From contig NZ_KE384547.1 of NCBI RefSeq assembly GCF_000426625.1, positions 852,986 through 916,985 on the forward strand: a stretch of 64,000 bases of DNA. The letters run 5' to 3'. Numbering within the stretch: the first letter of the stretch is position 1; each line of letters begins with the position of its first letter. This DNA is from Psychrilyobacter atlanticus DSM 19335. GTDB taxonomy: Bacteria > Fusobacteriota > Fusobacteriia > Fusobacteriales > Fusobacteriaceae. Of this stretch, positions 1 through 61,249 are shown in pieces. Position numbers and translations under genes: made by a program. Under the pieces are notes generated by a model. That model did no database searches. It saw nothing but the letters and a program-made list of their open reading frames with translations, and was not told where the DNA came from.

Positions 1-729
1 TTTAGTAGCGTCTGCGATAATTACATGGTGAGCTAGTTTCATATCTAATATTCTCTTTGCATTTTCTTCACTGTATTCAATTACGATAACTTTACCAGAA
101 TCTCCAGCATTTACCATGGCTTGATAAGCACATAAAACACCAGATTTTCCACCTCCGCCGATGATACAAACTGTGTCACCTTCTTTAACTAATCTTTCTA
201 CTTGAGCAGGAGCACCAGCTACATCCAGTGCAGCTAAAGCTAATTTTTCAGGGATATCTGTAGGTAAAACAGAGTAGATACCGGTTTCAAATAAAATAGC
301 TTGTCCATCTATATCAACTTGGTCGTTAGATACATTTACATTGTTAATCTTATCAATCTTTAATGGTGTAAGGGATAATGAAACTAAGGTAGCTAATTTA
401 TCTCCTACTTTTAAAGTTTTATCAGGAAAATCAGAACCGATCTCTTTAACAACACCGATCAACATTCCCCCAGATCCAGTTACTGGGTTTTGCATCTTTC
501 CTCTCTCTCCTACAATCTCATTGATCATAGTAGTCATCTTATCTATATCTTTATTGCACGCATCTTTTATTTGTGTGAATGACGCTGAATCAATATTTAA
601 TGTCATTACATCAAGTAATAACTCGTTATTTTTAATCTTCATTGTGTTATCAATTTTTACTGCAGCCTGTGGCATAGTTCCCATAGGTTCTATTACTCTG
701 TGTGTTCCAAATGGACATCCTTTTATCAT
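1..729 (-). CDS. kdd: 3,5-diaminohexanoate dehydrogenase, C-terminus cut by window edge
   Basis: Enzyme of the lysine fermentation pathway that oxidises and deaminates L-erythro-3,5-diaminohexanoate to 3-keto-5-aminohexanoate with NAD(P)+. I translated 243 codons from the ATG at 729 and the frame is open to the window edge; family members are roughly 340-350 residues, so about 100 residues lie outside. The N-terminus (MIKGCPFGTHRVIEP) and a glycine-rich nucleotide-binding stretch IIGGGGKSG at residues 189-197 fit the family. A GGGGGA ribosome site precedes the start, 11 bases after the stop of kce, so it is translated from the same kal-kce-kdd message. The neighbours are the strongest support: kce and kal carry out the next and a later step. 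Aminomutase genes would be expected beyond position 1. Confidence 0.93.
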   Translation of the reverse strand, partial: MIKGCPFGTHRVIEPMGTMPQAAVKIDNTMKIKNNELLLDVMTLNIDSASFTQIKDACNKDIDKMTTMINEIVGERGKMQNPVTGSGGMLIGVVKEIGSDFPDKTLKVGDKLATLVSLSLTPLKIDKINNVNVSNDQVDIDGQAILFETGIYSVLPTDIPEKLALAALDVAGAPAQVERLVKEGDTVCIIGGGGKSGVLCAYQAMVNAGDSGKVIVIEYSEENAKRILDMKLAHHVIIADATK

Positions 730-740
730 TTTGCTCCCCC

Positions 741-1556
741 TTATAATCCTAATATAACTCTTGCTTCTGCTGGTGTTGCAATTTGTCTTCCGAGCTCCTT
801 GGCAATCCTTACTACTTTGGCTACTAAGACACCATTAGATTCAGCCAAGACACCTTTTTCTAAATAGATGTTATCCTCAAAACCAACTCTTACATGACCG
901 CCACTTATGATAGCTGCTGTAGCCAATGAAAATTCAAATCGTCCAAGACCGGCAACTGAATAAGTAGATCCGCAAGGTAAGCTGTCTCTTAAGAATAAGA
1001 AGTCTCTTAACTCTCCTCCGATTCCTCCATTAACTCCCATTACAAAACTAAAGTGCATAGGAGACTTGATGAATCCTTTTTTATTTAATCTAACAGCCAT
1101 TTCAATCATAGATTTGTCAAAACATTCCAATTCAGGTTTGACATTTCTTTCTATCATCTTTTCACCAAATTCTTTGATGGTATTTTCTGTATTAGTAAAA
1201 ACTTCGTCTCCGCCAAAATTTAAAGTCCCACAGTCTAATGTTGCCATCTCAGGGTGTAATTCTGTAGGCTGTAATCTTTCTTCATTGGTCATCCCCACAG
1301 CTCCACCGGTAGATGGTTGGACAATAACGTCTGGACATTTTTCCTTGATAGCGTCTATACATAGTTTAAATCTTTCTTTTGACTGGGTAGGAGTACCGTC
1401 ATCTTCTCTCACATGAAGATGTATGATACTGGCTCCCTCTATATATGCCCCGTATGCTTGCTCTACAATCTCTTCTACAGTATAAGGAACGTTAGGGTTG
1501 TGTTCCTTAGTAACTTCAGCACCACATATGGCAGCTGTTATGATTAACTTTTCCAT
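741..1556 (-). CDS. kce: 3-keto-5-aminohexanoate cleavage enzyme
   Basis: BKACE/DUF849-family zinc enzyme. It condenses 3-keto-5-aminohexanoate with acetyl-CoA and cleaves it to acetoacetate plus 3-aminobutyryl-CoA, the central carbon-splitting step of lysine fermentation. The metal motif IHLHVRE is visible near residues 45-51 (the two His are ligands in the family), and the glycine-rich VRVGFEDN segment near residue 230 should carry the third acidic ligand. At 271 residues it has the family length. Two ATGs are adjacent; the second (1556) is chosen because it sits 5 bases from the GGGAGG site while the first is only 2 away. It lies between kal and kdd in one operon. Function is assigned from family and context together, because BKACE enzymes have several substrates. 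Confidence 0.93.
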   Translation of the reverse strand: MEKLIITAAICGAEVTKEHNPNVPYTVEEIVEQAYGAYIEGASIIHLHVREDDGTPTQSKERFKLCIDAIKEKCPDVIVQPSTGGAVGMTNEERLQPTELHPEMATLDCGTLNFGGDEVFTNTENTIKEFGEKMIERNVKPELECFDKSMIEMAVRLNKKGFIKSPMHFSFVMGVNGGIGGELRDFLFLRDSLPCGSTYSVAGLGRFEFSLATAAIISGGHVRVGFEDNIYLEKGVLAESNGVLVAKVVRIAKELGRQIATPAEARVILGL

Positions 1557-1618
1557 CATTGCCTCCCTTTTTTATTCTCTAAGAAAGCATAAATTAACTT
1601 TAAAAATTTAAATTACGC

Positions 1619-1643
1619 TTATCTGGGTAAAGCGTCACGCTTT
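1619..1643 (+). repeat. Dispersed palindromic element, copy A
   Basis: Diverged copy of the GATGCAACGTCACGTTGC element. Here the core is AAAGCGTCACGCTTT, preceded by TTATCTGGGT and followed by TTTAATTT. It lies in the kal-kce spacer and its end overlaps the kal stop codon. It keeps the TCA centre and the flanking CTGG of the other copies while the arms have changed in a compensating way (GCAACG/CGTTGC to AAAGCG/CGCTTT), which suggests the hairpin matters. Confidence 0.65.
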
Positions 1644-2026
1644 TAATTTCTTTGTTTATCTTTAGGTGTTACACAAGTTCCAGTGGCTCTGCAAACAACA
1701 ATTGGTTCTTCTAAGACTTCACAAGCAGAATCACTGATGTCAACTCTAGGAATGATAACCTTTCTAGCTTCAAAAACCATCCTTCTAGATGTGTTCCCGA
1801 CTTTTTCTATATAACCGACAGCCTCGATAAAATCTCCTGCATATACTGGAGCCATAAACTCAACGTTGTCATAGGCTTTAAATAATCCCTCGTCTCCATC
1901 TTGTCTGATGAGGAGCTCGGTAGCTACATCTCCAAATAAACCTAGCATTCTGGCACCATCTACTAAGTTACCCCCATAATGAGCATCGTGGGTACTCATC
2001 CTCAATCTAATCATTACTTCTTTCAC
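1643..2026 (-). CDS. kal: 3-aminobutyryl-CoA ammonia-lyase
   Basis: Small hotdog-fold enzyme that eliminates ammonia from L-3-aminobutyryl-CoA to give crotonyl-CoA, which then enters the butyrate branch. The 127-residue length and the segments [15 protein letters not shown] and [11 protein letters not shown] resemble the family and related hotdog enzymes. The start is a GTG (2026) seven bases after a GGGGGA site; a following ATG (MIRLRM) is less well placed. It is the first gene of the kal-kce-kdd operon, and a lysine riboswitch lies about 80 bases upstream in the leader. Without kce and kdd beside it a generic hotdog thioesterase would be hard to exclude; with them the call is firm. Confidence 0.92.
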
Positions 2027-2106
2027 AACTCATTCCCCCTTTTTATTTTTTGCATCAAAAAAAACACCTATCTATGATTTAAGACAGAAAATTACCAAGA
2101 ACTAAA

Positions 2107-2290
2107 AAGAAATAGCTCTCCACAACTAAAGTTGTGACAGTCAAGATGGATTTTCCCATATTAACCAAGGTTAGCTCTAGCAGATCCAACCTTTCGGCAA
2201 TTAAGTCCTTCACTTTTAACTTCAGAAGATCCTTTGATCTTTAAGATGTTAAAAGTTACCACAATAAATGCTCCTCTATTATATATTTTA
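2107..2290 (-). promoter_or_regulatory. Lysine riboswitch (L-box) in the leader of the lysine fermentation operon
   Basis: Read on the minus strand the leader has the L-box blocks in order: ATAGAGGAGC at the 5' end, GTGAAGG then TTGCCGAAAGG, a TATGGGAAAATCCATC hairpin, CTTGACTGTCAC, and the closing GTGGAGAGCTATT, with AATAG/CTATT forming P1. These match the lysine aptamer (RF00168 type) and line up block by block with the second copy at 61036-61205. The regulated genes break lysine down, so lysine should switch them on. Unlike the dapF copy I find no clear intrinsic terminator between aptamer and kal: a U8 tract (2057-2064) lacks a good GC stem. P1's 3' strand (CTAT) could pair with AUAG shortly before that U-tract, which would be consistent with lysine-dependent antitermination, but this is weak. 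Confidence 0.92.
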
Positions 2291-2345
2291 TTTATGTAAC
2301 CTATCTAAGAAAATGAAAACTCATTCATAGATTCGTTACAATACA

Positions 2346-2374
2346 TTTTTACTATATAAAGAACACAAAGTCAA
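2346..2374 (-). promoter_or_regulatory. Promoter for the kal-kce-kdd operon
   Basis: On the minus strand TTGACT, a 17-base spacer and TAAAAA, placed about 55 bases before the lysine aptamer, so the aptamer is transcribed near the start of the leader. Confidence 0.6.
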
Positions 2375-5842: not shown

Positions 5843-5864
5843 TCATCTGAATGATAAATTATTT

Positions 5865-6022
5865 TAAGGTACTTCTTTAATGGAGTTTAAAAGGGAAGAG
5901 AGGTTAGATGCCTCCGCGGTCCCGCCACTGTAAAGTTGACGAAGGCAAATACCACTGGAGAATTACCTCTGGGAAGGTTGCTTGTAGGATGAAACTGAGC
6001 CAGGATACCTGCCTTAAATTAT
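5865..6022 (+). promoter_or_regulatory. Cobalamin (B12) riboswitch
   Basis: The B12-box signature is plain: AAAAGGGAAGAGAGG, then GCCTCCGCGGTCCCGCCACTG, ACCTCTGGGAAGG, and the closing TGAGCCAGGATACCTGCC. P1 is formed by TTTTAAGG near 5865 and CCTTAAA near 6015. It lies between a strong promoter and an intrinsic terminator and precedes cbiK and two metal/corrinoid-type importers. With adenosylcobalamin bound the downstream terminator is expected to form and reduce expression; the switching hairpins are described in the terminator entry. Confidence 0.97.
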
Positions 6023-6046
6023 TTTTTATATTACTTGCGAGGACGA

Positions 6047-60878: not shown

Positions 60879-61035
60879 TAGGAAACTTTATATTTTCTAT
60901 CCTTTAGTGTGATTTTTCTATTTAGATAAGAATGAACAGAGGAAAAATATTGTAATAGTAGTTGATAATAATTATTTAAATTATATATATTAATTTATAA
61001 TAATTTGGAGGTATAATATATTATTACAATTAAAT

Positions 61036-61205
61036 GTTGATAGAGGTTGCACTTGATATTAGTAGTTTAGTGGAGATGGTTGGTCTGTGAAACTAGATGA
61101 AAGGATTTTTTGCCGAAGGGTATTTTTTTAACAGGAAAATACTACTGGGGATATAATGAATAATTATATCACTGTCATTGAAGTTTTCAATGGAGCGCTA
61201 TCTGA
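61036..61205 (+). promoter_or_regulatory. Lysine riboswitch (L-box) in the dapF leader
   Basis: The L-box blocks occur in order: GATAGAGGTTGCA, GATGAAAGG, TTTGCCGAAGGG, CTACTGGGGATATAATG, ATCACTGTCATTG and TGGAGCGCTATC, with P1 formed by GATAG and CTATC. It is followed by a strong terminator at 61250 and then dapF. P1's 3' strand (CTATCTG) could alternatively pair with CAGATA in the terminator's left arm, giving an antiterminator. Lysine should thus reduce dapF expression, as in known biosynthetic L-boxes. Several AT-rich -10-like words lie before it, but I could not choose a promoter. Confidence 0.95.
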
Positions 61206-61249
61206 AGGTATTTTATTCAGATGAGCTTCCAACAGCTTAAAAAATAGAA

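What the first reader, a model, noticed from the sequence alone, without database searches (positions are those of the whole stretch)
2107..2290. Lysine riboswitch on a lysine-degrading operon (predicted ON switch)
The L-box blocks are clear on the minus strand, between a promoter and kal-kce-kdd. Most lysine riboswitches turn off lysine synthesis or uptake; here the genes ferment lysine, so the ligand should turn them on. The usual terminator is absent downstream, which agrees with a different expression platform. Similar arrangements may have been predicted in fusobacteria before; I cannot confirm.
Basis: partly seen in the sequence, partly recalled or inferred. Interest (0 to 1): 0.75.

Follow-up and report, generated by a model that had tools for sequence, protein, structure and literature searches.

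The report
Lysine riboswitch on lysine-fermentation operon
A lysine-sensing RNA sits in front of genes that ferment lysine, an arrangement already reported in relatives; what looks new is how it probably switches: RNA made after the sensor can pair with three of the sensor's own strands and take it apart unless lysine holds it together.

Summary
Rfam's lysine aptamer (RF00168, 78.1 bits, cut-off 30) lies at 2286-2105, minus strand, 79 nt before kal. kal-kce-kdd continue beyond the window into kamA-kamB-kamC-kamD-kamE, a complete lysine-fermentation set. The arrangement and its ON logic are already published as predictions (PMC5584792; ON-type lysine switches also in PMC2258182).

New here is the expression platform. 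The genome's four other lysine riboswitches have strong terminators (-13 to -18 kcal/mol); the kal leader has only a weak one (-4.4). Clostridial kal leaders show a classical ON terminator built from the P1 3' strand (13/20 against 5/64 controls). Fusobacterial kal leaders, this one included, instead carry segments complementary to the aptamer's P1 3', P2 3' and P1/P2 5' strands, nested in reverse order and ending at a U-tract. Aptamer-platform pairing beats shuffles (mean z -3.8, n=19; controls +0.25; window: 2 of 1000 shuffles as low) and prefers its own partner (swap p=0.0002).

Best reading: without lysine the platform unzips the aptamer and transcription terminates; lysine holds the aptamer shut and the genes are expressed. 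Direction and the terminating step are inferred, not shown.

The parts
2345..2374 (-). probable promoter (TTGACT 2374-2369; TATAGT 2356-2351)
   Evidence: sequence; conserved in close relatives L087, L091, L008 and nearly so in L007; consensus scan, not significant alone
2105..2286 (-). lysine riboswitch aptamer (RF00168)
   Evidence: 78.1 bits, full-length match
2258..2277 (-). aptamer 5' strand (P1/J1-2/P2 5' side, AGAGGAGCAUUUAUUGUGGU), target of E3
2196..2210 (-). P2 3' strand/J2-3 (AAGGACUUAAUUGCC), target of E2
2111..2120 (-). J5/1 and P1 3' strand (GAGAGCUAUU), target of E1; P1 partner AAUAG is 2280-2276
2097..2104 (-). E1 (UAGUUCUU), forms hairpin with 2120-2113 and breaks P1
   Evidence: folds; two-sided A-U/U-A change in L009
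2081..2096 (-). E2 (GGUAAUUUUCUGUCUU), pairs with P2 3' strand
   Evidence: z -2.1 in window
2057..2078 (-). E3 with U8 tract (2064-2057), pairs with aptamer 5' strand
   Evidence: z -1.7 in window alone; -1.0 to -6.4 in 19 leaders
2068..2087 (-). weak local hairpin CUGUCU/AGAUAG before the U-tract
   Evidence: -4.4 kcal/mol
2035..2039 (-). Shine-Dalgarno-like GGGGG of kal
   Evidence: sequence
1643..2026 (-). kal, 3-aminobutyryl-CoA ammonia lyase (GTG start)
   Evidence: NF052388, 198 bits, cut-off 160
741..1559 (-). kce, 3-keto-5-aminohexanoate cleavage enzyme
   Evidence: NF052387, 446 bits, cut-off 382
1..729 (-). kdd, L-erythro-3,5-diaminohexanoate dehydrogenase (continues beyond the window, then kamA, kamB, kamC, kamD, kamE)
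   Evidence: NF052381 and equivalogs for the kam genes in L006

Best explanation
A lysine-sensing ON switch that works by guarding its own aptamer. The aptamer folds first. As RNA polymerase goes on it makes E1, E2 and E3, which can pair in turn with the P1 3' strand, the P2 3' strand and the P1/P2 5' strand, so the platform can unzip the aptamer from the base of P1 upward. Without lysine this nested refolding runs to the end, and the long helix of E3 with the aptamer's 5' strand, directly before a U8 tract, stops transcription. With lysine the junction and P1 are held, E1 cannot start, only a weak local hairpin is left before the U-tract, and polymerase reads on into kal-kce-kdd-kam. Shown here: the aptamer, the operon, the statistically unusual and co-varying complementarity, and the poor local terminator. 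Inferred: that the refolding happens during transcription, that its end state terminates, and that lysine therefore activates.
For: RF00168 match and a complete fermentation operon. Pairing of the aptamer 5' strand with the platform is better than shuffles in all 19 fusobacterial kal leaders (z -1.0 to -6.4) and centres on 0 in 64 non-kal riboswitches. P2 3' strand pairing mean z -1.54 against -0.02. Global aptamer-platform interaction mean z -3.76 against +0.25; window 2 of 1000 shuffles. Own platform beats exchanged platforms, p=0.0002; two-sided pair changes in E3 (+5) and E2. E2 starts before E3 in 18 of 19 leaders. Unconstrained folds contain the long-range pairing in all 19. Stepwise gain as E1, E2, E3 appear. 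Local terminators weak, p=1.7e-9 against controls. Clostridial kal leaders have a canonical ON terminator, 13/20 against 5/64. Published positive-regulation prediction (PMC5584792).
Against: In the window itself E3 is rich in G-U pairs and taken alone only z -1.7; part of it pairs the U-tract itself. A terminator whose 5' arm lies about 200 nt upstream is unusual. One relative (L007, an incomplete MAG) lacks most of E2 and all of E3. Two g4 leaders (L022, L040) have a moderate local terminator (-10). Pairs were chosen by maximum pairing and the leaders are related. No expression data.
Confidence: 0.5

Rival explanations
1. ON switch of the ordinary kind: only the P1 3' strand matters (the E1 hairpin, as in clostridial kal leaders); the E2 and E3 pairings are incidental or only stabilise the off state.
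For: The E1 hairpin is well conserved in Psychrilyobacter-like leaders and matched in g4, g7 and g12; single-strand switching by P1 is the commonest mechanism (PMC10907184); clostridial kal leaders do this.
Against: The E1 hairpin is not followed by a U-tract in the window, so it cannot terminate by itself; E2 and E3 complementarity exceeds chance and co-varies.
Confidence: 0.2
2. OFF switch: the aptamer form leaves the local CUGUCU/AGAUAG hairpin with U8 as terminator, and the long-range pairing is the antiterminator, so lysine represses kal.
For: The same parts allow it: E3 pairs either locally or with the aptamer, and a hairpin followed by U8 exists at 2087-2057. Most lysine riboswitches are OFF switches.
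Against: The local hairpin is -4.4 kcal/mol here and a median of -2.6 in 19 leaders against -12.6 in 64 controls; it is missing in L010. Repressing lysine fermentation by lysine makes little physiological sense, and clostridial kal leaders are built as ON switches.
Confidence: 0.15
3. Translational ON switch: the strand CUAUUUCUUUUU (P1 3' side and after) pairs with the kal ribosome-binding site AAGGGGGAAU without lysine.
For: The complementarity exists in the window (fold of 2118-2020).
Against: Ribosome-site accessibility with and without P1 changes in opposite directions among seven close relatives; U-rich/purine-rich matches are cheap; it leaves the conserved U-tract behind E3 unexplained.
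Confidence: 0.1

Closest known systems
Lysine riboswitch on catabolic genes kal/kce (F. nucleatum, C. sticklandii, Thermoanaerobacter; PMC5584792)
   Same: Same aptamer class, same first gene, same predicted positive regulation.
   Different: That paper does not describe the expression platform in the passages read; here the fusobacterial platform differs from the clostridial one.
ON-type transcriptional riboswitches with the P1 3' strand as terminator 5' arm (adenine, glycine, some lysine riboswitches; PMC2258182), as in clostridial kal leaders L051, L085, L023
   Same: Ligand is predicted to stabilise the aptamer and so prevent a terminator.
   Different: Here no strong terminator uses the P1 3' strand; the platform matches three aptamer strands, and the helix next to the U-tract uses the aptamer's 5' strand.
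Strand-exchange riboswitches that invade an aptamer helix during transcription (ZTP, yxjA, pbuE; PMC10907184, PMC9756952)
   Same: Platform RNA displaces aptamer pairs; the outcome is set kinetically.
   Different: Those are described with invasion of one helix or strand; here complementarity covers P1 3', P2 3' and the P1/P2 5' strand in nested order.
OFF lysine riboswitch of dapF in the same window (61033-61208, +)
   Same: Same aptamer family, same genome.
   Different: Has a strong separate terminator (-17.7 kcal/mol) that the kal leader lacks; controls biosynthesis.

Membership tests
Lysine riboswitch (RF00168) | Covariance-model score above the curated cut-off over the full model | tested here: met
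   78.1 bits, cut-off 30, positions 1-182
Lysine riboswitch (RF00168) | Conserved five-way-junction blocks that form the lysine pocket | tested here: met
   AGAGG, GCCGAA, UUGG, CUGUCA, GGAGAGCUA present in the alignment
Lysine riboswitch (RF00168) | Binds L-lysine | not testable with these tools
   needs in-line probing or ITC
Lysine riboswitch (RF00168) | Lies in the leader of a lysine-related gene | tested here: met
   79 nt before kal of a complete lysine-fermentation operon
ON transcriptional riboswitch with P1 3' strand in the terminator | Terminator 5' arm includes the P1 3' strand and is followed by a U-tract | tested here: not met
   not in the window; met by 13 of 20 clostridial kal leaders
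Strand-exchange riboswitch | Mutually exclusive pairing between aptamer and platform beyond chance | tested here: met
   2/1000 shuffles for the window; mean z -3.76 for 19 leaders; swap p=0.0002
Strand-exchange riboswitch | Ligand changes the transcription or translation outcome | not testable with these tools
   needs in-vitro transcription or a reporter
OFF lysine riboswitch | Stable terminator separate from P1, formed with ligand bound | tested here: not met
   -4.4 kcal/mol against control median -12.6, range -7.0 to -19.3

The most novel reading that the evidence does not exclude
Fusobacterial kal leaders use an undescribed expression platform: a nested, reverse-order complementary imprint of three aptamer strands that unzips the whole lysine-binding junction during transcription and closes a terminator between the aptamer's 5' strand and a U-tract about 200 nt downstream, giving an ON switch under kinetic control.
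Probability: 0.45. Interest if true: 0.7.

Novelty: new variant of a known kind. Interest (0 to 1): 0.5.

Why it matters
Most strand-exchange riboswitches are explained by one switching strand, usually in P1. If this reading holds, a platform can be a multi-segment complement of the aptamer that must displace several helices in order, which makes kinetic control across a gap of 10-24 kcal/mol directly testable. It also gives a contrast between two lysine riboswitches 59 kb apart in one genome with probably opposite logic, and a mechanistic basis for the published but unexplained positive regulation of lysine fermentation in fusobacteria.

Tried and rejected
Translational anti-Shine-Dalgarno model: accessibility changes in opposite directions among close relatives. 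Local CUGUCU/AGAUAG hairpin as a strong terminator: too weak, and absent in L010. E1 hairpin as the terminator: no U-tract behind it. The first nhmmer profile, from five sequences, missed or only partly matched several clostridial aptamers; L023, L024 and L045 were placed by hand in agreement with the RF00168 hits. A few apparent P1-3' terminators among the controls (5 of 64) are weak, long-looped folds and probably artefacts of the terminator search, but were counted. Rodionov 2003 (PMC290268) is not held, so its prediction is cited only through PMC2258182 and PMC5584792. Literature searches found no description of this platform, but most subscription papers are not searchable here.

Full report
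What is there. Rfam's lysine aptamer model matches window 2286-2105 on the minus strand over its full length with 78.1 bits against a gathering score of 30. The genome (3.54 Mb; the nearest named relatives by Kal are Psychrilyobacter and other Fusobacteriaceae MAGs) has five lysine riboswitches. Downstream lie kal, kce and kdd, and beyond the window kamA, kamB, kamC, kamD and kamE, each above its NCBIfam equivalog cut-off, followed by a TIGR00366-like gene (just under that model's cut-off) and a CoA-transferase. This is the complete lysine-fermentation set.

What was known. PMC5584792 reports lysine riboswitches upstream of kal in Fusobacterium nucleatum, C. sticklandii and Thermoanaerobacter and says that these genes are positively regulated. 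PMC2258182 states that certain lysine riboswitches have ON logic.

Conservation. A search of 98 Fusobacteriota genomes found a match to Kal in 34, a few of them weak. The riboswitch stands directly upstream of kal in every genome of the same genus in which kal was found and in members of five other genus-level groups, but not in one large group (g3), where kal follows a transporter gene. It is also upstream of kal in many Clostridia.

Two ON architectures. In clostridial kal leaders the P1 3' strand is itself the 5' arm of a strong terminator (for example L051, L085, L023, L045): 13 of 20 against 5 of 64 non-kal lysine riboswitches, Fisher p=6.5e-7. Sequestering that strand in P1 by lysine would prevent termination, which is ON logic. 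Fusobacterial kal leaders mostly lack this. Their best local terminators have a median of -2.6 kcal/mol, against -12.6 for 64 non-kal riboswitches (p=1.7e-9). The window's is -4.4, while the four other lysine riboswitches of the same genome, which by their downstream reading frames precede an aspartokinase (lysC), dapF and two membrane-transporter genes, have -13.4 to -17.9 (gene names from my reading of the translations).

The fusobacterial platform. Behind the aptamer come three segments. E1 (2104-2097) pairs with J5/1-P1 3' (2120-2113). E2 (2096-2081) pairs with P2 3'/J2-3 (2210-2196). E3 (2078-2057) pairs with the aptamer's 5' strand (2277-2258) and ends in U8. Their order is the reverse of the strands they match, so all three helices can nest. 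In other genera the sequences differ but the targets are the same: L116 AUUAAAUGCAC-U6 against GUGCAUUUAAU; L040 UAUAUGCA-a-CUCUAUUUUU against AAAAAUAGAG-g-UGCAUAUA; L098 UUAACUAUGUCU against AGGACAUAGUUG; L105 GCAAUUAUACCUU against its own altered P2 3' strand.

Statistics. Against dinucleotide shuffles of the platform, the 5' strand pairs better than the shuffle mean in all 19 leaders (z -1.0 to -6.4). The global aptamer-platform interaction has mean z -3.76, against +0.25 in 64 controls and -2.52 in clostridial kal leaders. For the window alone 2 of 1000 shuffles reach the observed -17.6 kcal/mol. Exchanging platforms among ten representatives weakens the interaction (own -18.1, other -13.4, permutation p=0.0002). 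Two-sided changes occur at E3 position +5 (A-U in this genus, U-A elsewhere) and at several E2 positions. Caveats: pairs were chosen by maximum pairing, the sequences are related, and in the window E3 alone is only z -1.7.

How it probably works. Folding the window's leader at growing lengths, the aptamer form is within 0.8 kcal/mol of the best fold until base 2103; after that the free form gains as E1, E2 and E3 appear, by 11 at 2091, 17.5 at 2079 and nearly 20 at 2055. In all 19 leaders the long-range form is 10-24 kcal/mol better than the aptamer form. That is more than ligand binding plausibly supplies (general knowledge, not measured here), so the choice must be made early and kinetically: lysine would hold P1 before E1 can invade. 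The invaded state puts a long helix right before the U-tract; the intact state leaves only a weak hairpin. Hence termination without lysine and expression with it. The termination step and the direction are inferred. The mirror-image OFF model uses the same parts and is disfavoured mainly by the weak local hairpin, by gene function and by the clostridial precedent. A translational model finds no consistent support.

Verdict. Observation confirmed; the arrangement is already published; the platform is a plausible new variant of a strand-exchange ON riboswitch that simple transcription assays can test.

Noticed in passing
window 61033-61208 (+): A second lysine riboswitch (111.7 bits) upstream of dapF, with a strong separate terminator as in OFF switches; a natural contrast to the kal leader.
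   Followed up: partly
L010/L090 1-494: In one Psychrilyobacter-like MAG the whole kal riboswitch, platform and U-tract included, is duplicated head to tail with only a few differences. Tandem lysine riboswitches are known in general (PMC9481103).
   Followed up: partly
L007/L088, last 60 nt before kal: One relative lacks most of E2 and all of E3; E1 and the aptamer are kept. Natural variant or MAG assembly error between U-runs.
   Followed up: no
L019, L028, L033 (about 445-620 nt after the kal start): In Eubacterium/Lachnospiraceae a second lysine riboswitch follows directly after kal inside the operon, probably before the next gene.
   Followed up: no
L023, L045, L053, L060, between aptamer and kal: Two successive terminators, both beginning with a copy of the P1 3' strand (G-GCGCUAU-like), as if one aptamer had two chances to terminate.
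   Followed up: no
G104 C2:239140-239309 and 239374-239545 (-) (G007, Propionigenium maris): Two lysine aptamers in tandem, 65 nt apart, in a genome with nine lysine riboswitches.
   Followed up: no
window 5850-6030 (+): Cobalamin riboswitch (118.5 bits) upstream of a CbiK-like gene and iron/cobalamin-type transport genes; lysine 5,6-aminomutase of the kal operon needs B12.
   Followed up: no
L107, L108, L111-L115 (group g3), also L109, L110, L117: In these fusobacteria kal directly follows a transporter gene and no lysine riboswitch was found in the stretch examined; regulation must differ.
   Followed up: partly
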